Part shown: piece by piece, positions 4,584 to 51,482 of the stretch
Layout of the letters: each line of letters starts with the position of its first letter
Position numbering within the stretch: the first letter of the stretch is position 1
Assembly (NCBI GenBank): GCA_030770425.1
Contig: JASJFT010000119.1
Coordinates: 62,001 to 126,000 of the forward strand
Source: Darksidea phi
Taxonomy: Eukaryota > Ascomycota > Dothideomycetes > Pleosporales > Lentitheciaceae
Length of the DNA: 64,000 nt
Direction of reading: 5' to 3'
Program-made: the position numbers and the translations under genes
Notes under the pieces: generated by a model
What the model was told of the DNA's origin: nothing
What the model saw: the letters and a program-made list of their open reading frames with translations, nothing else
The model's database searches: none

Positions 4584-7286
4584 TCAATCTAAGCTTGCTG
4601 TTTGTTGCTGGACTCGAATCTTCGCAGCAGCCACTAGGCGTGACCGCTCAGCGACCTAACATCTACTCTCGTTCAGCGACTTAACATCTACTCTCATTGA
4701 CCTTGAGCCCTACAAGTATGCTGAAGGGGGATAACCGGAAATGAGGTAGCACCATATGAAGGTCGGATACACGAATACGAAAAAATTAGTAGAGCGAGGT
4801 TGTGATGAGAGACCGCCCCGCCTTTTCTACTTGCTTAGGCTGACAGAGGTTTTCGTGGCAAAGATTGGCGATTGATGACCTAAAGGCCGAGGCAGAGAGG
4901 GTTTAGGCTTCGATTAGTAATATAAAGCTTTGACCTCATCCAACCATTTGCGGCGAACTCACGAAAAACACCACACCTTTAGCTCTCCTCACGACTACGG
5001 AATTCTCGCTATGATGTTCTCCGGGACGGCATTTTCATTGATAAATCCACCCCGTATTTACCACATACCATTATCATACCTACGTAGCTAACCATGGCAA
5101 CCGCAACCCTTCCACACTGCAAGCCGCATTACTCGCCCCCTCGTCTCTGTACTCATTACACCACGCATACTTACATCCCCACGAGTCCGCCTACCACAAA
5201 ATAGCTTTGCCGCCGACGGTATGGTCCATGGAATACGTACCCGACACTCCGCAATGAGGGTTCTGAAGAGCTAGCGTTCTAGTCCCGGGTAAACAAGGTA
5301 TATGTCAATAGTATTTTATGGCGTTCAATATACTATTGGGTAATTATCTAAGGCTTGGTGCGTGACGTGGCATGAGATAATGGCGAGAGCATATACGGAC
5401 GTGGGACGTGTATGCATCAGGGAGTACTTAGAATGACCCACCGTACCCTACCTATACGTTGACGAGGAATTCTTCGGGGGTCTTGATGTCCTCGTGACAA
5501 TTCACCAGGACGAACCATTAGGAAAGATGCTAGCGATAAGGGTATGCTGGTACTAGAAAAGCCTGCCGCATCCGCAAAACACGAACATTGCTTGCTTTCT
5601 TCCACCCTGACCTGCTACACGCTAGCTCGAGGCTCCGCGCGCCGCCTCCTCCAGCGTCCTCACGCCCGATCCGATGACAACTACTGCAAGGTCTCGGCAT
5701 ACCACAGTCTGATAGAAGCTTATGAAAACGTCCGTAATTCGTTTGCAAAGGCGCCCTACTATTAAAGTACCGCTTCTATGCGCGGGTGTTTCTCTTGCCT
5801 CGAAATTTGTCGCTATTAGATAAATCGATTTGTTTAGATTCTCCATTGTAATTGAGTGCAACATTTAATTTCTTGATTCACTTTAAGGGAATAGAAAGAT
5901 TGAGAAGGATGTAATTGCATCTATATGGATAAGCTTTGTATAAACGTAGCGCAACTTCGCGCCTCATGACCTGTTAGACCAAAGCGATAGAGGTAGCTAC
6001 CAGTGTTGGAGTCTCGCAACATTCTGCGCCCCATCCCGTGCCTGTCAATGTTCGAAATATTACCTCGTCAGTGGTGAAAATTCTCTCACGATCGAAAGTA
6101 CTGCGTACAGCTCTACAGCTGTTACCGTGTACAAATTCCTACTGTATTTCGTGCGGGTCTTACAAAGAGACTCCGACTATCAGAATCCAAAGAAATAGAC
6201 AGGGGGATAAGGTGCGTATTTACCGCTAAATCTGCTAGAGACACGGTAATAAGGTCTAGTGAACGGTATAGTTTGAGTACTTTTGTTGACATACAGTGAT
6301 GCAGTCAAAAGGCTTGCATAGTCTGGACGAGCGTAATCTGAACCTATACATACGCGATGTATCGTGAAGAAGACCATCCATGAGGTATATCCGTAAGTCT
6401 AGAGGCTGCCTCAGCCGTCTCTTCTTCGGTCCTGTTTTAATGATAAAAAGCTTTCCGCGCGATGTGTGCGTGCTGATGCGACGTCTGCGAAAGACACTTT
6501 CCTTTGTGTATACTCCTAAGGGTATGCCGATGGATCTTGATCCGGATACGATGCTCCATGACGTCAAACCAACCGCTATTTGAGCTTTAACATGGCGCCT
6601 TTCTCGAGAAACCGCTTCTAGATGTGCTGCCAAGTTCATGCGACGTCGGCCTCTATTCGGCGAGGTTGAAACACGGTGCGGAACAATTCCTTGTGCACAG
6701 GCAAGCCAGTCATGGCCAACACTAGTACGTTAACCAGATTCTCTTCGCTTCACTTGCTATCCCCTCCACATCGGCAGACAACCTTCGGTAAATGATTTGC
6801 ATGCTAGCTCCACGCATCTTAATTATTATCACGAGGCGACACTCTATGCAGACCAATGCCGACCCAATGCCGGCATTTGGAGAAGGTGCGGGGGCGGGGC
6901 CCACAGCGTCCTCCCTATCGCTAAATTGGGCTCAAAGTGCTCAAGAGCTTATGAAGCCTCCACACCTCGCCGACAGTTGTGGCGGATTGTTTCTTTGAAT
7001 AAAAATTCATTTATCTGCAAGGGCTGGACCAGGGCTCCGCCTAAATTTCCGGGATAAGGCGGTGGCTAATGTCGATCTGGAAGGCGAGCAGACCATGTCA
7101 ATCACATGGCGTTCCTGCAATTTATATGTGGAAATTTGGAATCCGGAGGGGCGGCTCGAGTGGTTCCCCACACCCTGCCGGCGGTAGGAATCTGGGGTGC
7201 AGAAACCTTATAACTGGGACTCTTGTTTGAAACTATGGCCAGCTCCTACGGCGACTCCTTGCGCCAATCGATCATCAACTTCGACA
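4584..7286. other. Gene-poor stretch with a coding remnant and a dispersed repeat
   Basis: No intact gene is seen. At about 5110-5252 (+) a 48-codon open stretch (containing LHHAYLHPHESAYHKIA) reads like conserved protein, but it has no start and ends in a stop, so it is probably a remnant of an unidentified gene. A repeat copy lies at 6043-6195. The rest shows nothing recognisable. Confidence 0.4.
6043..6195 (+). repeat. Dispersed repeat, copy 1 of 3
   Basis: This segment aligns to 46552-46710 and 53744-53877. Shared blocks include CAATGTTCGAAA, TACAGCTCTACAGCT, GTGTACAAA, TTTCGTGCGG and a final ATCCAAA. This copy is the most diverged and lacks the internal TATAAGGTGCGGGTATAGCACC block. It is probably the terminal part of an old mobile element; no coding capacity is seen. 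Confidence 0.6.
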
Positions 7287-22498: not shown

Positions 22499-25400
22499 CT
22501 AAGCCAAGTTCAACTCCATGATCGTTACCCTACCAGAGTGGTGCCCAAGAACAACAAGACTGCCTGAAACAGCAGCACTCGTTGGTTGATCGTCGGAAGG
22601 AAGGTAAAGGAGTCTTTCAGCGTCTAGCGATACCCAGCTGTTCGACACAAGTATACTTTTCTTCGACCTCGGGGCAAATGGCGCCGCACAAATTGTAACT
22701 CTCGGGAAGCTGGAGTCAACCCTGAGCGTCTGCAGTTCTGCACCCGTTGTCGCGTCCCAAAGCCAAATAGTTCCGCCGAGCCCAGCTCCTGCCACTACCT
22801 TGCCGTCGGGTGAGAAGGTGATAACATTGATTTGGCCCATAATGAGCTGAAACCTTTGGATAGCCAATCCTGTGGTTGTATCCCACAGCGTTATAACCCC
22901 TCTACTTGATGTCGCCGCCACTACCTCATCGTTCGGTGAGAAGGCGATCGCCATAATATCCTCTGAAAGGCCATCAAGTGTCTTTACTACATCCCCTGTT
23001 ACTGTGTCCCAGATCTTTACAGCGCATTCTAAGCCTGCCGCCACAAACTGACCATTATGCGCGAAGGCTAAGAGACTGGGATGCCCTAGGCAAGAGAGTT
23101 TATGTATGATAGCACCTGTTGTTATGTCCAAGAGTCTGACACTCCACTCGACTGCTGCCTTTGCTACCATTGCTATCACTGTTATTGCTACCACCTTGCT
23201 ATTAGGTGAGAACGCAAAAGCCAAGATTGAGAAATCATAGCCGTCGGGTAAACGGGTAGCCTCGCTTGTTTTTGTGTTGTAAAGCCTGAAATCGCCGTTC
23301 GATAACATTGATGCTACTAATCTTCGGTCAGGTGAAATGGCGACATCTTTGACATAACCTCCGGGACCAAGGCCATCTAGCGTGTGTGTAGTCGTATTCT
23401 CCAATGCGTTCCACAGTTTGACAGTTGCATCTGATGACGCTGATGCCACTAGCTTGCAGTCAGGTGAAATAGCTATCGCCGTGACATGTACTGGATTCTG
23501 AACGAATGTTTGCATAGCTTCACCTGTTGCTGTGTCCCAGAGTCTGACAGTGCCATCATATGCTGCCCATGCCACCATCTTGCTATCTGATGAGAAATCT
23601 ACGCAACGGACATACTCTGAATGCCCATCAAGCGTATGCACAGCCACCCCCGTTGTTAAGTTCCAAAGCTTAACAGTGCGGTCCTTGGATGCTGACGCCA
23701 ATATCTTGCCATTAGGTGAAAACGCCATATCAAGGATCTTTTGTTCATGGCCACTTAGCGTCCATACAGCTCGACCCGTTGTTGTGTCCCAAATCTTGAC
23801 TTCCCTGAATTGTGAGCTCGAAGCGAATTTCTTACAGTCAATTGAGAAAGCCCTGCGATAGCTATAGGGGGTATAAATACCCTGTAATACCGCGCCGGTT
23901 GTTACTTCCCAGAGTCTAGCATAGTATCCGTTTGATGAGGCTACCACATTGCCGTCAGAGGAGAAAACCACATGCAGGCGTTGTGCACACATGTCATTGA
24001 AAAGGAGTGTCTGCATAACCGCACCCGTTACTGCATTCCAAAGCCTAACAGTTTTGTCTTCTGCTGCCGACGCTAGGACCTTGTTGTTAGGCGAGAAGGC
24101 CATAGAAGTCACTCTAGCTGAATGACCGTTAAGCTCGTGCGTGACGGCCCCTGTTATATGCCACAGCCTAATGGTATGACCCGCCAATGCTGACGCTATT
24201 ATCTTACCATCAGGAGAGAAGGCCACCATATAGGCAGAGTTTCTGTGGTCAAGAAGCAGCGTGGTCGCACCCGTTGTTGCGTCCCACTGCCTGGCAGACC
24301 CATCTTTTAATGCCGACATTACTAGTTTGCTATCGGATGAGAAGGCCACCTCAGAGGCGTCGCTAGGATAGCAATCTAGAGAATGTACTAAAGGGCTCCA
24401 ATCATCTTGAACTTCTGGTAGCCGTTGCATCCATGTGGGTATTCTATCCTCAAACTGCTTTCTGATGATGCTCTTCGACGGAGCAAAAATAAGAGCGCTG
24501 CAGTATGTTTGCAGAGGAGCGTGCTCAACGGTGGACTGAGCGTGTACAGTGAATTTCTTCAAGTCGCAAACAAATGCATGCAGCCGAGGACAGTCGCACG
24601 TCTATATGATGACTTAGTTTGGTACTTGTGACATGCCGGAGATAAGCTTACAAGAACGAGGGACTCCAATGAGCTGACTGCTACGGTTGCTTCACGCATC
24701 CTCTCCATCCAGCCTAGTGCCTCAAGCCAATGAAGGCAATGCATCCGTAGAAAACGGTGTACTCGATCATCGTCGCAAAGCTCGCCGCCACTTTGTTGAA
24801 GATGTTGAATCCAGTAGAGGCATGCGTACTGAACATCTGGAGGAAGACACTGCTCCACGCGAGCTCTCTCTACGTCAGAGACAAACACACCGGGTGCCTT
24901 GATATTGCAAATGTCCTGCTTAAGACTGTTGGTCATAAGCCGGATACAGCATTCAGCCAATGTTTGATGCGCTTGCTTAGCGTCTACCCAGAAATCCCCC
25001 GATCTCTGTTCTTTTAGCAAGAAGTCACGGAATGAGGGGTGATGTAGGCGGAGTGGTTGTTTCTCGTCGTTTGGAAGGTCCAGTATTGCATGAAGATCTT
25101 TCAGCAATCGATCCGCCCTCTGTCTTGGTATATCTAGCAGTCGGCTTAAAGCTGCCACTGAGAGGGGCGAGAATAAAGCCACGGCGCTTCCGAGAATCCG
25201 TCTCAGGAGGTCATGCAACGTCCGCTTTTCTTGTTGCGTATAATCAGGATGTAGGCAGTTTCGTAAAATTCTATCGTAAATCCTATTCAGGTGTTCCTCT
25301 GGAGTATTGGTGGACGCATCACCATCGAGGAGTGTGCGCAGTCTGTCTTCAGCGAATAGCCCTTCACGTATGAACCGGCAGGCAGTTGCAGCCCAAATGA

Positions 25401-26377
25401 ATAAACCACTCGCACTCTGGACCAGGTTTCCAATGACCTTTGCGCCCGGCCAGCTGGCATCGAGAGAATGTTCCTCCCTAATGCGCTGTAGGCTGTATTC
25501 CAGAAATACCGATATATCATGGTCGATAATCGGCGGTGATATGTCATGGAGAACAAAATCCTGGTGCTCTGCATCTGGTATCTGGCAGAAGCCGTACCTG
25601 ATTGGCGTTTCGGGCCTACTTGTTAGAAAAACTTGAAGCTGTACCCGTTCTAAAGAGCGAATTTTAGATAGGAGCTGTATAATAATACGAATGCTCCCGT
25701 CATTATCGCACTCGTCAAGCGCATCAACTACTAGAAGATACAATGTTTTGCAACCGTTGCCGTCTAGCTTCGATAGCGGGTGAAGTACGAGATGTTGCCA
25801 TTGGTCGTGCAGGGTTTGGCTTGCAATGTCGCTACGCTCTGTAATAGCATCGCAGATATGGCGTTGTAAAGCGGGTATACTGTCTGCCAACTGAATAGCG
25901 ATGCTCGTCACAAATTTGGCAGAATGGCTAGTGTCTCCGCCGCCTCTTGAGAAGAAGAAGCTAGCCCCAAGGCAGCCTTGCTCAAAGAACCTGCGGGCGA
26001 TAGTGCGCGCGATTGTCGACTTCCCTGTGCCAGCCAGACCCTTCAACCAGAAGATGCGTTCTTTATCTCGTTGCCCACCCCAGCTGTAAATCTTGGAGAG
26101 GAGATCGACTCGAGTATCGGGGAGGCACTCTGACTCGCGTTGCGTAGAATACGAGTTGAAGCGTGCTCCAACAGCGTATGGTAATCGACCGATAGGATTG
26201 TCCAGTCCTAGGTTTTTGCTTAGCGTCCTGTTTTTACCCATTCTTTGGGGCGCACTCACCGAAATAGTTTATGTCTCCCAGCTGGTGGGTGCCTCCGCTA
26301 AGGTGGATGCGTTTATATCGGTGTCCAGATGGACTTCCATCGTTCCTCCTACGGTTCGTCGAGTCGGAAAAGGACAT
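22499..26377 (-). CDS. NACHT-WD40 NOD-like receptor with an N-terminal amyloid-type motif
   Basis: Exons 26377-26260, 26207-24652 and 24601-22499 with introns of 52 and 50 bp give 1258 residues. Exon 1 is a proposed short exon: ATG at 26377, an exact GTGAGT donor, and CCTAG as acceptor. It encodes residues 1-39, including a G-rich motif at 19-40 (HRYKRIHLSGG then THQLGDINYFG) that pairs with the neighbouring HELL protein. Next come the NLR linker FNSYSTQRESECLP (56-69), Walker A GLAGTGKST (96-104), Walker B LLVVDALDEC, TSRPE, and a C-terminal array of about 13-14 WD40 units (enough for two seven-blade propellers) from roughly residue 590 on. In such receptors ligand binding to the repeats drives NACHT oligomerisation, which clusters the N-terminal motif and seeds amyloid folding of a partner. 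A predictor could start at the internal ATG near 26241 and miss exon 1. Confidence 0.88.
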
Positions 26378-26600
26378 CTACTACCAGCGTTCGTTGGTTT
26401 GGGTCAAAGTAGTTCGGCTAGAGTCTGGAGGAGTGAAGATCGTTCCGAACAGCCCGATTAGAGCCTTCGTATAGGCTTGCTGGTCTTGGCAGCCGAACCG
26501 AAGCGGGGTTGCTGCCTACCGTCGACATGACAGCGGAGTTAGTAGACTAATTATCGTCACCTCTCTTTCAACTATCTCAACTAGGCAAGGTCTATCAGTT
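26378..26600. promoter_or_regulatory. Short divergent promoter between NLR and HELL genes
   Basis: Only 223 bp separate the two divergent start codons, so the NLR and its presumed executioner probably share regulatory DNA. I cannot name individual sites. The short spacer also keeps the two genes linked in crosses, which would suit a receptor/executioner pair whose motifs must match. Confidence 0.6.
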
Positions 26601-27560
26601 ATGGCAGACCCATTAAGCATCACTGCAAGCGTCATTACTGTCGCCACTCTCGCATATTCCAGCAGCAAGACGCTCTATCGAACGATTTCTGGCATCCACG
26701 AGGCTTCCGAAACTTTCGCGCATTTGGAAACCGATCTCAAAGCGCTCTACGAAACGATCTATGCGTTGCAGCAACAGCTAGAGCAAATAAACCCCAGTGT
26801 AATATTCTCCGAACCGCAAAAGTCAAATCTACGTGAGATCAAGCCCACCTTAGCCGCATGCCAAAGGGCATGCGATACTTTCAAAAGTAAAATCGAGCAA
26901 CTCACGCGTCACTCTACAAACAGCCATTTCAGTTTGCGGGACAAAGTGAAGTTGCAATTCAAGGAGAAGGAGATTAAGGCATTCCAAGCGCAGCTCGGTA
27001 GTTATAAATCAACACTAGTTATCGCTCTAGAGTTCTCCACCTTGTAAGATACCATTTACACTCGAACTGTGCAGCGTCTAACAAGGCCACCAAGAAAAAC
27101 CGCCTCGGAAAACCTTGACGCTACAAAACGCCTCGAAACGAAAATCGAGGACGTCACCACCCGTCTCACGGGGCAAATGCAAGGCCTTCAAATTGGATTG
27201 CAAGCAATCCTTGATGCTAGTGCTGAAAGCCAAGATGCCGTCGAGGCTGAGTATCATCCTCAGTTCGCCGAAACACAGCGGTTTGAACTTCGGCATGCCA
27301 TTGACGCCATTGAGCAGCAAATAGTTGCGCTCAGTCACTGCTACCGAGCGTGCATGGCGGCATTTCAGGAGACAACGAAGGCAACGGGGCATGAATTCAA
27401 ATTGGTGAAGGCTTCCAACCAGGCAAAATTGCTTCTGGGCGACGTGGGCGACGGGAAAGGTGGTGGACTACACAAGTACAATGATATCACCGTGGATGGG
27501 GCAAACCTACTCGCTGGCAACCTCGAAGGCAGGTTTCTGAAAGACTACTTTAAATGTTAG
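26601..27560 (+). CDS. HELL-domain (HeLo-like) protein with C-terminal HET-s-type prion-forming repeats
   Basis: Exons 26601-27043 and 27095-27560 with a 51-bp intron (GTAAG donor, CTAAC branch, AAG acceptor) give 302 residues, close to the 289 of HET-S. The N-terminus ADPLSITASVITVATLAYSS followed by long helices matches the fungal Helo_like_N domain, a relative of HeLo and MLKL four-helix bundles that permeabilise membranes. The first helix is hydrophobic. The C-terminus has two pseudo-repeats. R1 is about 247-264 (HEFKLVKASNQ, AKLLLGD). R2 is about 274-290 (HKYNDITVDG, ANLLAGN). A Gly-rich linker separates them, and an aromatic tail (RF, then DYF) follows, much as GFWDN follows R2 in HET-S. 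R2 aligns without gaps to residues 19-40 of the divergent NLR. The inferred role is cell-death execution after amyloid templating by the NLR. Confidence 0.85.
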
Positions 27561-27902
27561 TCACAGTATCTGGGATGGGAACGAGAATTTTTCACTCTGT
27601 TGTTTCCCAATGGGGACTAGCGCTCTTGTTATATCGCCTTTCATTATGGCGGAAACTTTTCCGCGTACGACTTTAACTTTCATACTATAGACATCTACTT
27701 AAAGAGTGCACTTGTTAGGATGCCGACGATTTTTGCAAAGCTGTAAGAGCAGAAGGGAATATTGGGTACTTGGCAGATTACTTCAAGCGAAAGCGGCTGG
27801 AGGCTGCAGTAGAGTCAACTCCAAACCTTCGCATGACACGAGCACCACAAACAGCCCTTAACAGACGTCCAGGTGCCCTCACTTCTTAACACGACAGTAC
27901 CC
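27561..27902. other. Spacer between HELL and membrane-protein genes
   Basis: A 342-bp spacer with no complete gene. It contains the short dehydrogenase-like coding remnant at 27702-27746 and presumably the HELL 3' UTR and the promoter of the next gene. Confidence 0.5.
27702..27746 (+). pseudogene. Orphan 3' end of a betaine-aldehyde dehydrogenase-like gene
   Basis: The 45 bp read KSALVRMPTIFAKL and stop. The intact dehydrogenase at 20055-21566 ends [18 protein letters not shown] and stop. The nucleotide match covers AAGAGT, then CCGACG and TTTTTGC (continuing to AAG, one position apart) with a short gap in between. It seems to be a relic of a second dehydrogenase copy or of a rearrangement that moved the gene end; nothing upstream extends the match. 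Confidence 0.5.
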
Positions 27903-28841
27903 ATGGCTAGAATGGACGACAGTCCGCTATCGATCATAGCCAGTATCGCCGGCATTCTCACCTTCATCGCAGCCTTGTGTGCATTCATATATGTCTGGTA
28001 CACGACGTTACGAAACGGGAGAACGGAACTCGCCACGATCGTCGAATCCGTCGCAGCCACGATCGAGGAGACAAGAGCAATACACATAGCGCAACCAGGG
28101 CCCAACACGCAGCCTACCGGGGGTAGCGACGCCTACTCAGAACGGCTTAACAAACTAGTGTCGGAGCTGTATACGATTGAACTCGGTATTATAGCTCAAT
28201 GCATGAATATATCGGGCCTGGACTCTCAGGCGATGCAATCAATATGGCGACCTACCCACGTCGGAATCAATGTTGATGTGAATACGATGTGGAACGACAT
28301 GTTAAAGGAGTTGGAGGCGATGCAGAAGAGGTTGGCGTCTCGCCCAAACGTAGTCGAGCAATGGCTCCAGTTTTTGCCTACGTCCGATCAAACCTATCGG
28401 GGCCTCGCCCTCCTGTCGACGATTATCTTTCATGTAATTAGCTTGGGGTCAACGCCGACGATGATGCGCTGGTATATGGTCCGAGAGAAGGTATTGCAGT
28501 TGCTTCAGCGGCGCGAGATCATTCGATCAAGGCTGTTGTTCCATCAGATTTCGGTTGCAAATTCGTGAGTTAGATTGCTGCGCAGGCCTTGATGAGGACT
28601 GAATGGCTGACCTCGTGCTAGGGCAGCTAGAAGTCAGGAGGCGCTGGTCTGTGACTTGGTGATGAGGAATGACTTGCTTGAAGCTAGGCTGAGCCAGCTC
28701 AGTCATCTTGCTATAGAGACGAATGGGTTAGTGCAGCGACTGGTGCAGGACAATGATGGGACCAAGGACCAGATTGTTCGTTTGACAGACCCACCGGACA
28801 AGTATGATGAGACACAGAAGCCTGCTAACCCCATAGCTTGA
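27903..28841 (+). CDS. Hypothetical protein with an N-terminal membrane segment
   Basis: Exons 27903-28564 and 28622-28841 with a 57-bp intron (GTGAGT donor, GCTAG acceptor) give 293 residues. The start is the first ATG of the frame (ACCCATGG context). Residues about 7-30 (SPLSIIASIAGILTFIAAL onward) form a strong transmembrane helix, followed by a charged helical region and a coiled-coil-like C-terminal half rich in Leu and Arg. No known domain is recognised. It is the next gene downstream of the HELL gene, on the same strand, 342 bp away. A link with the NLR/HELL pair is suggested by position only. It could equally be an unrelated membrane-anchored protein of the kind common next to fungal NLRs. 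Confidence 0.65.
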
Positions 28842-29949
28842 GGGAACTACAGACGGTATTCTTCTCATATGTTTGCAGAGGTATATCCAGAGTTCTACAG
28901 GGTATGCTGACGTGACTGGCTACCTTCAACATTTGAAGGCTGTAAAGCATTGCTCAGGCATTTGTATTAGATGGCGTTAAAGCAAGGGTTAGATTCCGCT
29001 TGGAATCTAATTAGTATCCTACCATAGGTAGGCGTGCTCAGCTGAACGGCTCCTGTAGTGCTACCCTGGATACGCAGGCTAAATGACGAGCTATTAGTCT
29101 AGCTTTTCCTCCAGGCGCGGCTGGACAGTCTACTATAGATGTAGCGGACCCACTGAGAGGTGCATCGCACAAGACGTGTAGAAGCATGACCATGAGCTCA
29201 GCCAACCCACATATCCTTATACCATGTTGTACAAAACATTTGAACCCGCCGAGTGATTCGCAACAGGTAAACCAACGCGCATCTTATCAGACATCTCATC
29301 AGATGCCTGCGTATCCCTCGCACCTCCCACCTCCCTCTATCCCGATCGATTCCGAGAAACATGCCAAGCTAGTATCGGCTTGGCAGCGCCCGACGAGATG
29401 GCTCCCGGCAATCTTTCTTCACCAACACCCCTTCCGGCATGTCAACCAGGCCGCCAAGCAACAGGAGCCCACGCTGCAATATAGCCGCCTGCATTCCGCG
29501 TTCTAGACGGCGATGGCATCATTTTGGATCATGCTAGCTCATGTGTGCCTCCCATCGGCCGAAGTCCCCTTGCGGCGAGTGGTGACCTAATGGATGTCAA
29601 CTAGCGATGCGAGACGGAAATTGGCTCCTGGTGATGCGGGTCAGATACATAATCACTGTCGATTTGCCACTTACGTGCGTTGACTGGATTTACAATTTGC
29701 TNNNNNNNNNNGGCCCTTGCGGGCTGGGGTTTCCCAAATGTATGCAAACACCCCTGCGGTGCGGCAAATTGCCCCCGGGGCAGCGGGGCATCTAACAAAA
29801 CACCGGCGTATTGGCCCTTTCGGGCGGTGCCCTGTCTTACAATTTGCTGTAGATTAACTTGACAACAGGCAGCCAGCGCTTTTTAGCTATCGTAGTAGCA
29901 CCCTGCTATCGTCCACTTATCGCCACCACCAACAAAAGCCTATCCTGCC
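28842..29949. other. Intergenic stretch with an assembly gap
   Basis: No gene is supported; a 106-codon plus-strand frame near 29186-29506 looks compositionally random. The GC-rich segment 29712-29836 beside the gap has several short self-complementary pieces such as GCCCTTGCGGGC. Confidence 0.5.
29702..29711. other. Assembly gap (10 N) beside a 12-bp direct repeat
   Basis: Ten Ns follow TTACAATTTGCT (29690-29701), and the same 12 bases recur at 29837-29848 after a GC-rich segment. A repeat at a gap edge suggests a collapsed or misjoined tandem repeat, and the true gap length is unknown. Confidence 0.85.
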
Positions 29950-47716: not shown

Positions 47717-50700
47717 ATGGATGGACGTCTTCCATACGACGCGTCTCATCCTTCAAAGCGACAAAAGACTTTCCATGGAGACCTGGGCGATGTCGTTGAT
47801 GAGTCGCGAAACTGTTCGCCCACTCCACGACAAGATCATTACACGATCGCCTGGATCTGCGCTCTGCACATAGAGATGGCAGCAGCTCGTGCTATGCTGG
47901 ACGAAACTCACCAAGCCCTACCCATGCATGTGAACGACAGCAACACCTACATACTGGGAAGCATCAAGCATCACGGCGTTGTCATTGCGTGCTTGCCAAC
48001 TGCCCAATATGGAACGAATAACGCAGCAAACGTAATAACCCACTTGATGCGTACCTTCCCATCGATCCGGTTGGGTTTGATGGTAGGGATTGGAGGCGGG
48101 GTGCCGAGCAAGGCTGATGTACGTTTGGGTGACATCGTTGTCGGAACAAGGGTGATGCAGTATGATCTTGGGAAAATCGTTGGCGGCGGACAACTCCAGC
48201 GAACAGCTATCTCTAGGATTCCTCACCAGTTGCTCAGGACAGCCGTGTCCACCCTTCGTTCGGAACACGAGCTGCAGCCCAGTCGAGTCCTGTCCATCTT
48301 ACGGGAGAGGATGGAAGGACACCCCGAGTACGGTCGCCCGAGCTCACCGGATCGCCTCTTTCAAGCGACTTATGATCATGAAGACCACAAAGGCCCCGGC
48401 TGTGATGGATGCGGTCAGTCGAAGCTGGTGCTACGAAGCAGGCGGATATCCGATGATCCGATGATACATTATGGTGCGATTGCTTCAGGGAACCAAGTCA
48501 TGAGACACGGCAGAACCCGGGATGAGGTTGCCCGACAACTGGATGTCATCTGTTTCGAAATGGAGGCTGCTGGCCTGATGGATATTCTCCCTTGTCTCCC
48601 AATTCGGGGAATCTGCGACTACTCAGATTCTCACAAGAGCAAGGAATGGCAGAGGTATGCCGCAGCAACCGCGGCCGCATACGCAAGGGAATTGCTCGGG
48701 GTGCTACCTGTGGCTGAATCGCAAGCAAGAGTTACCTACACGCCTAGCACTTGTAAGTTAGCTTAGAACTCGGGAACAACTTTGAGTCACTGCTGCTGAC
48801 ACCTGATGTGCAGATCAGTTCTCGTCGCACGAACGCCGGCAGCGCTTGCTAGACTCCCTCAGATTCAAGCAAATCGATTCTCGTAAATCAACCATAGAAA
48901 CCGCCCACGCAAAAACGTGTCGCTGGTTCCTCAACCACCCCAGCTATCAAGCATGGCTTGATCCCGGAAAATTAACGCAACATCATGGCTTTTTGTGGAT
49001 GAGTGGCAAGCCGGGTGCTGGAAAGTCAACAATGATGAAGTTCGCATACTCAAGCATGAAGAGAAAGGCCTGTGGCGGGCATTCTATCACTGCCTCCTTT
49101 TTCTTTAACGCTCGAGGTGAATACTTGGAACAGTCGATCTTCGGAATGTACCGATCATTGCTGCTCCAGCTGCTCGAAGGATACCCTGATCTCCAGACAG
49201 TCTTGGACGATCCCGACCTTGTTTCCCAGAGTCAGAATGGCTGCCCTTCCTTGAATGTTCTCAAGGACCTCTTTCACAACGCAGTTTCCGCCCTCGGTCA
49301 ACGCTCGTTTACCTGCTTCGTCGATGCTCTCGACGAGTGTGACGAACAACAAGTTATGGACATGGTCCAATACTTTGAAGAGCTGGCAGAACAATCCACA
49401 GACAACGGCATCGCGCTCCGGATCTGTTTCTCCAGTCGACATTATCCCTACATCGTCATTCAACGGGGGATCCGCCTTACACTGGAGGACCAGCCAGGCC
49501 ATGCCGAAGACTTGGCAAACTACGTCGCAAGCCGGCTCCGAATCAAAGACCCCGCGCTCATCGAAGAGCTTCTCGGGAAAGCTGCTGGTGTTTTCTTGTG
49601 GGTCGTCTTAGTTGTCAACATTCTCAACAGAGAATATGGCCGGGGTCGACTGGCTCTAAGAAAGAGACTCGAAGAAATACCGGGTGGTTTGAGCGAACTG
49701 TTCAGAGACATCCTAAGACGTGACAATGAGAATATGGAGGATCTCCTACTTTGCGTCCTCTGGATTCTCTACGCAAAGCGGCCGTTGCAACCGAAGGAAT
49801 TCTACCATGGTCTCTGGTCTGGTTTGTCACTGAAAGGTCTGGCCGATCCCGAAATCCCAGATGTCGCCGCCCCAGATGCTGGTGATAGCGTTAATAGATG
49901 TGTTATCAGTTCGTCAAAAGGACTCGCTGAGATCACGAAATCCAAGGAGCCAACGGTCCAATTCATCCATGAATCTGTCCGGGACTTCCTCGTCAAAGAC
50001 AAGGGTCTGCAAGAATTGTGGCCTGATCTTGGATTCGACTACGAGAGCCCAAGCCATGAGAGACTCAAAGAGTGTTGCAACTCATACATGAATCATATCT
50101 TGGCGCGTACGTCTGTTAGCGAGCTGCTATCACAGACAAATTCAAAGGGGCAAGCGAAAATCTCAAAAGAGTACCCGTTTTTGGAGTATGTCAGCAAGCA
50201 TATTCTCTACCATGCCAACGCTGCTGCGGATGCGGTCCCTCAACATGAGTTTTTATCTCGTTTTCCCGTTCCCACTTGGATCAGTTGCATCAATCTTTTC
50301 GAAAAGCACCAGGTTCGTAGATACAAGCCAGAGGCAAGCCTTTTCTATATTCTCGCAGACAAAGGATTCTCGGAGCTCATCCGCACGAGGCTCAAAGACG
50401 ACCCACGTGTTCATGTTTTTGGAGAGAGATACAGGTACCCGCTGTTTGCCGCTTTGGCCAACGGCAACAAAGATGCTGTTGCTGCTCTTCTGAACTCGCC
50501 CTCGAGCATCTGTAACGGAGTCGACATTACAGAGGGTCTGAGCTGCAGGAAAGACTTAAAAGAATACAAAAATCGAACACCGTTATCTTGGGCTGCCCAG
50601 GATGGTCGGGCAGGCATTGTTAGGCTGCTTCTCCAAACAGGGACGGCCGTCAATGAGGCGGATGGGGGGGGCCAAAAGCCACTCTTACGGGCCTCAGAGA

Positions 50701-51482
50701 ACGGCCACGAGGCAGTAGCAAGGCTTCTTATCGACAGAGGAGCAGACGTCAATACTAGCAATAAAGACGGATCGACACCACTCTCTTGGGCCTCAAGGAG
50801 CGGCCACGAGGCAGTAGCAAGGCTTCTTATCGACAGAGGAGCAGACGTCAATACTAGCGATAAAGACGGATGTGCACCACTCTATTACGCCTCAAGGAGG
50901 GGCCACGAGGCAGTAGCAAGGCTTCTTGTTGACAGAGGAGCAGACGTCAATACTAGAAATAAAGACGGATGGACACCACTCTCTTGGGCCTCAAAGAGCG
51001 GCCACGAGGCAGTAGCAAGGCTTCTTATCGACAGAGGAGCAGACGTCAACACTAGTAGTGAATACGGATCGACACCACTCTATTACGCCTCAAGGAGGGG
51101 CCACGAGGCAGTAGCAGGGCTTCTTATCGACAGAGGAGCAGACATCAATACTAGCAGCGAATACGGATCGACACCACTCTTACAGGCCTCAGAGAACGGC
51201 CACGAGGCAGTAGCGAGGCTTCTTATCGACAGAGGAGCAGACGTCAACGCTAGTAGTAAATACGGATGGACACCACTCTTACAGGCCTCAAAGAACGGCC
51301 ACGAGGTAGTAGTAAGGCTTCTTATTGACAGAGGAGCCGACGTCAACGTTGGCAACGAATACGGATCGACACCACTCTCTTGGGCCTTAATGAGCGGCCA
51401 CGAGGCAGTAGCGAGGCTTCTTATCGACAGACGAGCAGACGTTAATACCAGCGCCAAAGACAGATCTATACCACTCTCCTAG
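47717..51482 (+). CDS. NOD-like receptor: PNP_UDP - NACHT - ankyrin repeats
   Basis: Exons 47717-48752 and 48814-51482 with a 61-bp intron give 1234 residues; splicing recreates the standard linker YQFSSHERRQRLLDSLRF. Residues about 40-340 are a purine-nucleoside-phosphorylase-like effector domain (GLMVGIGGGVPS, CFEMEAAGLMD, IRGICDYSDSHK, AAAYARELL). The NACHT NTPase follows, with Walker A SGKPGAGKST and Walker B CFVDALDECDE. The C-terminus is one diverged plus about eight near-identical ankyrin repeats. Such receptors sense a ligand through the repeats and activate the N-terminal enzyme domain; relatives with PNP domains hydrolyse nucleotides or nucleosides in defence. The TAG stop falls inside a repeat where the others have TGG, and the repeats go on beyond it, so the receptor is probably truncated compared with its ancestor. 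Whether it still works is open. Confidence 0.9.
50668..51480 (+). repeat. Near-identical 99-bp ankyrin-coding tandem repeats
   Basis: Units begin at about 50668, 50767, 50866, 50965, 51064, 51163, 51262, 51361 and 51460 in perfect 99-bp (33-codon) register. Most differ only at a few positions, clustered at the variable surface residues: around GSTPLSW/GCAPLYY/GWTPLLQ and TSNKD/TSSEY. The core GHEAVARLLIDRGADVN is almost invariant. This is the pattern of recent unequal exchange with selection at binding positions. Confidence 0.9.

What the first reader, a model, noticed from the sequence alone, without database searches (positions are those of the whole stretch)
26260..27560. NLR and HELL protein carry matching amyloid-type motifs: a candidate prion-signalling pair
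Residues 19-40 of the NACHT-WD40 receptor and 274-295 of the divergent HELL protein align without gaps: H[KR]Y, then I-x-[VL]-x-G at the same spacing, then G[ND][LI] five residues after the first G of that block plus one. Both have G at the same two core positions, with alternating hydrophobic residues between. The known precedent is NWD2/HET-S, where the receptor's N-terminal motif templates the HET-S prion fold (HET-s-related amyloid motif, HRAM). Here the motif sequence differs from HET-s, so it may be a divergent subfamily or a new variant. The genes are divergent and 223 bp apart, as expected for a co-inherited pair.
Basis: partly seen in the sequence, partly recalled or inferred. Interest (0 to 1): 0.92.

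Follow-up and report, generated by a model that had tools for sequence, protein, structure and literature searches.

The report
Fungal receptor–executioner pair sharing amyloid motif
Two neighbouring fungal genes, an immune-type receptor and a predicted cell-death protein, carry related short amyloid-type signalling motifs, so the receptor probably switches on its partner by passing on a protein fold; this is a new member of a known class of fungal systems, not a new kind.

Summary
The motifs and the gene models behind them are real: a NACHT-WD40 receptor (NLR, 1258 aa) and a divergent HeLo-like (HELL) protein (302 aa), 223 bp apart. Alone, the two-sequence match is weak (986 of 20,000 shuffles score as high). 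[quoted passage not shown] Neighbouring relatives occur in Endocarpon pusillum (consecutive locus tags), and the cassette was duplicated in this genome (C49; relic C428). Best explanation: NWD2/HET-S- and FNT1/HELLF-type amyloid signalling to a membrane-targeting death domain. Amyloid formation is untested. Pair specificity is not supported: the window receptor motif scores higher with a paralogous locus's effector (C359) than with its own partner. Verdict: well-supported new member of a known kind, moderate interest.

The parts
26260..26377 (-). NLR exon 1 (39 codons + 1 nt): short N-terminus carrying the receptor motif
   Evidence: 25.2 bits to an r0 profile built without it; contiguous exon-1/NACHT joint in homologous proteins P0018, P0019, P0039
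26270..26329 (-). r0 motif, NLR residues 17-36 SGHRYKRIHLSGGTHQLGDI
   Evidence: H3, G19, D20 and 4 of 5 core hydrophobic positions; one residue shorter than the 21-mer; lacks K/R15 and a hydrophobic residue at 16
26208..26259 (-). NLR intron 1 (52 nt, GTGAGT...CTAG)
   Evidence: frame-preserving; homologous proteins read through the joint
24652..26207 (-). NLR exon 2: NACHT (NPHP3_N / PF05729) region
   Evidence: NPHP3_N 3.7e-30, NACHT 4.5e-10
24602..24651 (-). NLR intron 2 (50 nt, GTAAGC...ATATAG), my choice among the frame-preserving candidates listed
22499..24601 (-). NLR exon 3: WD40 repeats and stop; protein 1258 aa
26378..26600 (.). 223-bp divergent intergenic region
26601..27043 (+). 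HELL exon 1 (HeLo-like domain, PF17111)
   Evidence: PF17111 6.6e-30; spliced protein 1.3e-33
27044..27094 (+). HELL intron (51 nt, GTAAGA...TCTAAC...CCAAG)
   Evidence: homologous proteins are continuous across the joint
27095..27560 (+). HELL exon 2: end of HELL domain and amyloid-type tail
27384..27446 (+). r1 repeat, HELL 245-265 TGHEFKLVKASNQAKLLLGDV
   Evidence: H3, 5/5 core hydrophobic, K15, G19; present in 12 of 16 homologues
27447..27464 (+). Loop GDGKGG (6 aa) between r1 and r2
   Evidence: length and glycine content as published for HRAM loops
   Evidence: best r0-profile match in the protein; 5/5 core hydrophobic, G19, N20; one residue shorter than the 21-mer

Best explanation
A two-gene amyloid signalosome of the HRAM class. 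When its WD40 repeats sense a ligand, the NACHT receptor oligomerises and brings its N-terminal r0 motifs together, so that they fold into a beta-solenoid rung. This templates r1 and r2 in the tail of the HELL protein. Templated stacking of the tail releases or refolds the helical HELL domain, which moves to and damages the plasma membrane, giving regulated cell death (immunity or non-self recognition). Shown here: gene models, motif homology, two-repeat architecture, recurrence and co-duplication of the pair. Inferred from HET-S/NWD2, HELLF/FNT1 and HELLP/PNT1: amyloid fold, templating, membrane attack, cell death.
For: HELL domain PF17111 1.3e-33 and NACHT + WD40. A tail with r1-loop-r2 fits the published HRAM positions: r1 and r2 have 5/5 core hydrophobics and G19; of 85,588 background positions in NLR sequence 1 fits the full pattern (N/Q/H at 3 included) and 3 with one deletion allowed. 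r1 and r2 are both present in 11 of 16 homologues, r1 and the start of r2 in a 12th. r0 family: 21 of 51 short NLR N-termini, two seeds included. Profile-profile r0~r1 and r0~r2 beat all 200 column shuffles each, r1~r2 all but 1. Neighbouring pair in Endocarpon pusillum by consecutive locus tags and equal contig length; duplicated divergent cassettes C49 and relic C428. FNT1/HELLF shows the same architecture working by amyloid templating (PMC7889193, passages).
Against: No amyloid, seeding or cell-death test exists for these sequences. The window r0 is degenerate for an HRAM (no K/R15, H at core position 16, one residue short). The pairwise r0-HELL match alone is marginal, and pairwise r1-r2 similarity inside the window HELL is not significant (4615 of 20,000 shuffles as high); of 12 homologues only P0010, P0013 and P0014 show it (at most 2 of 2000 shuffles), with P0011's segment mis-cut by the script. 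Cognate specificity is not significant. AlphaFold2 models (P0001 full length; window exon 2) have low tail confidence (pLDDT about 30-44), and the P0001 model had no Foldseek PDB match at E <= 0.001.
Confidence: 0.78

Rival explanations
1. Branched network rather than a private pair: the H3-type motif is shared by several loci of this genome (C23 window, C49, C359, relic C428, more distantly C29 and C452), and the intact window HELL executes death for more than one receptor, including the C49 receptor whose own HELL copy is broken.
For: C49 NLR frames look open (552 + 719 aa) while its HELL, as assembled, has two in-frame stops and a frameshift. The C359 r0 scores higher with the window HELL (37) than with its own effector (24), and the window r0 higher with the C359 effector (40) than with its own (28). 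Non-adjacent amyloid signalling has been proposed in print (PMC9815663 section 24; PMC7889193 passage).
Against: BLOSUM scores of 22-residue motifs do not measure seeding; known prion classes do not cross-seed (PMC7885112 passages). Conservation may only reflect duplication.
Confidence: 0.25
2. The motifs are true HRAM descendants, but the window pair is decaying and no longer signals.
For: The window r0 lacks K/R15 and the hydrophobic residue at 16; sister cassettes are broken (C49 HELL, C428 relic).
Against: All window exons are open over 1258 and 302 codons with good splice sites; r1 and r2 keep all core positions.
Confidence: 0.12
3. The resemblance is coincidence between two short H-x-Y...G-D/N stretches.
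For: Single-pair alignment is marginal: 986 of 20,000 shuffles; 4-seed profile 592 of 5000.
Against: The 23-sequence profile without the window gives 0 of 5000 for HELL and hits exon 1 at 25.2 bits; profile-profile controls; recurrence of the pair.
Confidence: 0.05
4. The motifs are homotypic binding motifs that work without an amyloid fold.
For: No reliable structural evidence for the solenoid here.
Against: The core pattern is that of motifs shown elsewhere to form beta-solenoids, including a HELL-domain protein with very low identity to HET-s (PMC7889193 passages).
Confidence: 0.07

Closest known systems
FNT1/HELLF of Podospora anserina (HRAM5 in PMC7889193 and PMC5485727; the 2015 paper's text says HRAM4)
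   Same: NLR with an N-terminal motif next to a HeLo-like protein with two C-terminal HRAM repeats
   Different: Other HRAM class than the H-at-3 motif here; HELLF was tested as a prion and its fold solved, this pair is untested
NWD2/HET-S of Podospora anserina (HRAM1)
   Same: NLR with single r0, effector with r1-loop-r2, adjacent genes
   Different: HeLo (PF14479) versus HELL (PF17111) domain; Pfam PF11558 tail signature not found in the window HELL or in 10 homologues at E <= 0.1, but matched by another locus of the same genome, C120
HRAM3 subfamily (Daskalov 2015, PMC4518210; example Cladophialophora psammophila, PMC5485727 legend)
   Same: H at position 3, hydrophobic 5/8/10/16/18, G19; K/R preference at 15 met in r1; HeLo-related effectors beside NLRs
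   Different: Logos not seen, so assignment rests on the text; r0 and r2 here are one residue short
PNT1/HELLP (PP motif)
   Same: HELL-domain executioner and adjacent NLR
   Different: PP motif and NB-ARC/TPR receptor; no PP core here

Membership tests
HRAM (HET-s-related amyloid motif) | Invariant G at position 19 | tested here: met
   r0, r1, r2 all G19; criterion from PMC4518210
HRAM (HET-s-related amyloid motif) | Hydrophobic residues at 5, 8, 10, 16, 18 | tested here: met
   r1 5/5, r2 5/5, r0 4/5 (H at 16); r0 and r2 need a one-residue gap placed by alignment
HRAM (HET-s-related amyloid motif) | Two repeats in the effector tail with a 6-18 residue, often G-rich loop | tested here: met
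   r1 245-265, loop GDGKGG (6), r2 272-291
HRAM (HET-s-related amyloid motif) | Adjacent NLR with a single N-terminal copy | tested here: met
   223 bp apart, r0 at residues 17-36
HRAM (HET-s-related amyloid motif) | Preference for K/R at position 15 | tested here: inconclusive
   Met in r1, not in r0 or r2 of the window; met in r0 of P0019, P0109 and C49
HRAM (HET-s-related amyloid motif) | Amyloid / beta-solenoid fold | not testable with these tools
   AlphaFold2 strands fall on positions 5-10 and 14-19 of r1 and 8-10 of r2, but pLDDT is only 33-44 there
HRAM3 subfamily | H at position 3 | tested here: met
   r0, r1, r2; definition from text only
HRAM3 subfamily | Clustering with the published HRAM3 set | not tested
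Canonical HET-s prion-forming domain (PF11558) | Match to PF11558 | tested here: not met
   None in the window HELL at E <= 10, none in 10 homologues at E <= 0.1; only 38 of 155 published HRAM proteins match it
HeLo-like (HELL) death domain | PF17111 match at the N-terminus | tested here: met
   1.3e-33, residues 2-202
HeLo-like (HELL) death domain | Membrane targeting and cell death | not testable with these tools
   Known for HELLF/HELLP from paper passages
PP motif | NxGxQxGxN-type core | tested here: not met
   Read from the sequence by eye; core wording

The most novel reading that the evidence does not exclude
This genome runs a branched amyloid network: three or more paralogous receptors (C23, C49, C359; NACHT exons of the latter two 63% and 59% identical to the window's) share one H3-type HRAM code and signal to a common or overlapping pool of executioners (the window HELL and a three-repeat effector at C359 without a Pfam HELL match), so a receptor that has lost its own executioner (C49) still works through the window HELL in trans.
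Probability: 0.2. Interest if true: 0.6.

Novelty: new member of a known kind. Interest (0 to 1): 0.38.

Why it matters
It adds an intact-looking HELL-HRAM/NLR pair whose HELL relatives occur in Dothideomycetes, Eurotiomycetes and Leotiomycetes (Zopfia, Endocarpon, Hyaloscypha), with sister cassettes in the same genome at different stages of decay. That set would allow a direct test of whether related amyloid motifs in one nucleus stay insulated or cross-seed, a point discussed in the field's own review (PMC7889193 passages). As a mechanism it repeats an established scheme.

Tried and rejected
Pairwise statistics alone: marginal or not significant, so not used as proof. 4-seed r0 profile: too narrow for HELL (a faulty linker regex in that script left only 2 NLR N-termini; corrected). 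Regex-chosen r0 set (exon 1 21.7 bits, HELL r2 7.0 bits with 1 of 5200 decoys as high): kept only as support because the regex imitates the motif; redone without motif regex. Cognate-pair permutation: not significant in any grouping (497 of 5040 for all 7 pairs, 13 of 120 for the 5 of this genome, 355 of 720 without C120); reported as a negative. Foldseek on the P0001 model: no match at E <= 0.001, model too poor. Sequence search of PDB with the HELL family: best E 0.11, designed helical proteins, uninformative. Pfam on part of the C359 effector's first frame (132 of its 174 aa): only a sub-cut-off match. PF11558: none in the window HELL or in 10 homologues; one search showed only 25 of 54 families for the group, so it is not used for that claim. 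The 27837-28568 ORF as a third partner: no Pfam family over cut-off, and no second copy among the loci held.

Full report
What is there. On the minus strand, exon 1 (26377-26260) encodes MSFSDSTNRRRNDGSPSGHRYKRIHLSGGTHQLGDINYF and splices over a 52-nt intron to a NACHT exon. A second intron (24651-24602, my choice among the frame-preserving candidates) leads to a WD40 exon; the protein is 1258 aa. Pfam gives NPHP3_N 3.7e-30, NACHT 4.5e-10 and WD40. On the plus strand HELL starts at 26601, has a 51-nt intron (27044-27094) and encodes 302 aa with PF17111 at 1.3e-33. The start codons are 223 bp apart. Both exon-exon joints are supported by homologous proteins that read through them: P0018, P0019 and P0039 for the NLR, the HELL homologues for HELL.

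Is the motif match real? Alone it is weak: 986 of 20,000 shuffles of exon 1 score as well against HELL and 655 of 20,000 against its last 64 aa. Relatives decide it. The HELL search found 16 proteins at E <= 1e-3; 11 of 16 show both repeats, one (P0009, partial) shows r1 and the start of r2, four show no tail (P0008, P0012 and P0015 look truncated, P0016 is distant). For the receptor, one search listed the best 120 (P0017 included) of 3392 NLRs related to P0017. In 112 of 120 a linker could be found, and 51 have an N-terminus of 25-150 aa. I started from four r0 sequences picked by NACHT homology, by a search with the window's first 80 residues, or by adjacency to a HELL homologue, and trimmed them to the motif by eye. 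The iterated profile found 21 of the 51 (two of them seeds), scored the window exon 1 at 25.2 bits (best of 3060 decoys 9.3), and in the window HELL picked residues 274-285 with 0 of 5000 shuffles as high. Against this: with only the four seeds HELL was not singled out (592 of 5000), and exon 1 lay below the best decoy's first round (4.6 against 7.0), though above it (9.0 against 5.4). Profile-profile scores with the r0 set: r0~r1 21.6 and r0~r2 21.6, each above all 200 column shuffles; r1~r2 14.8, 1 of 200 shuffles as high. In that comparison the segments were cut by pattern (18 of 22 r0 by a regex), which favours the anchor columns; the shuffles keep composition but not that choice.

The tail reads TGHEFKLVKASNQAKLLLGDV (r1, 245-265), GDGKGG (loop), GLHKYNDITVDGANLLAGNL (r2, 272-291). 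Against the positions published for HRAM (PMC4518210: abstract, first part of Results, sections 7, 9 and tables read), r1 and r2 have all five hydrophobic core positions and G19; r0 has four of five (H at 16) and G19. All three have H at position 3, as the text gives for HRAM3. Among 85,588 background positions of NLR sequence 1 meets the full pattern and 3 with one deletion allowed. The paper's loop rule (6-18 residues, G-rich) is met. As plain sequences r1 and r2 of the window HELL are not significantly alike (4615 of 20,000 shuffles); of 12 homologues P0010, P0013 and P0014 are (at most 2 of 2000), and P0011 was mis-cut. P0010, P0011, P0013 and P0014 carry a full-length r2, so the one-residue deletion is a feature of a subgroup. 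AlphaFold2 puts strands on positions 5-10 and 14-19 of r1 and 8-10 of r2 in the window's own exon 2, but with pLDDT 33-44, so this is only suggestive; the P0001 model is equally uncertain in the tail.

Where else does the pair occur? P0006 and P0109 of Lineolata rhizophorae share a contig length, so are probably on one contig; adjacency not shown. In this genome (51.35 Mb, 477 contigs, 84 NACHT matches, a lower bound): C49 has the same divergent pair (NLR 62-63% and HELL exon 1 66% identical), with NLR frames open and HELL, as assembled, broken by two stops and a frameshift. C428 keeps a HELL fragment and, divergently, an orphan exon 1 with r0 GGYTYQNLHISEAARAHLGDTYYFG and no convincing NACHT match within the 9.9 kb held. 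C359 has an NLR 59% identical, with r0 GHNYHDFSMNGCSAVVGNVYHVG, facing what I take as one effector gene: a first frame of 174 aa (132 aa of it scanned, no Pfam HELL match) and a later frame with three repeats. C29 and C452 have more distant HELL proteins with the same two-repeat tail. C120 carries a canonical PF11558 tail (3.9e-22). The HELL-NLR cassette has thus been duplicated as a unit, which supports a joint function.

Result against a private pair. For seven linked pairs I scored each r0 against each effector: the sum over true partners is reached by 497 of 5040 pairings, by 13 of 120 for the five pairs of this genome, and by 355 of 720 without C120. The window r0 scores 28 with its own HELL but 40 with the C359 effector, 33 with Lineolata's and 29 with Endocarpon's; the C359 r0 scores 37 with the window HELL and 24 with its own. 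The C29 r0 in that test is uncertain, Lineolata's linkage is inferred, and the C49 r1 was read across its lesions. So the match is one of class, not of this pair. Published counts (PMC4518210 Table 2) likewise show r0 grouping with its effector by subfamily.

Mechanism. By analogy with NWD2/HET-S, FNT1/HELLF and PNT1/HELLP (PMC7889193, PMC7885112 and PMC5485727, passages read; PMC9815663, outline, sections 6, 19, 24, 40 and passages read), ligand sensing by the WD40 repeats would cluster r0, template the r1-r2 tail and release the HELL domain onto the plasma membrane. Only architecture and homology are shown here; amyloid fold, seeding and death are inferred.

Novelty. HELL domain + HRAM + adjacent NLR is a published architecture (HELLF), and H at position 3 is published as HRAM3. 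I searched the held library twice by topic and did not look for this particular locus by name, since the species is unknown. I file it as a new member of a known kind.

Noticed in passing
window 48807-51482 (+): A second NLR-type frame in the window: NACHT-like region (weak match to the window NLR, E 6.8e-4) followed by what read by eye as ankyrin repeats, 891 aa open.
   Followed up: no
window 27837-28568 (+): 243-aa open frame with a hydrophobic, possibly transmembrane stretch near its N-terminus, just downstream of HELL; no Pfam family above cut-off and no second copy among the loci held.
   Followed up: partly
L041 (G000:C49:98000-107900): Sister divergent HELL/NLR cassette: receptor frames open, HELL disrupted by two stops and a frameshift as assembled.
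   Followed up: yes
L056 (G000:C428:122000-131900), about 4945-5760: Relic cassette: HELL fragment and orphan r0 exon (GGYTYQNLHISEAARAHLGDTYYFG), no convincing NACHT match in the 9.9 kb held.
   Followed up: yes
L057 (G000:C359:14900-17209): Receptor 59% identical facing a presumed effector with three H3-type repeats ahead of a long run of glutamates at the contig end; the scanned part of its N-terminus has no Pfam match over cut-off.
   Followed up: partly
L050 (G000:C120:63500-73400): Canonical HET-s-type tail (PF11558 3.9e-22) and a weaker second one about 1 kb away (7.2e-5), between two NACHT genes: a separate HRAM1-type system in the same genome.
   Followed up: partly
P0048, P0080, P0036, P0047, P0116 and others (NLR N-termini): Relatives of the window receptor carry other short G/N-rich N-termini, or long N-termini that look like HET or PNP domains, instead of r0: this receptor clade seems to swap N-terminal signalling modules.
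   Followed up: no
window 29702-29711: Run of 10 N (assembly gap) downstream of the locus.
   Followed up: no
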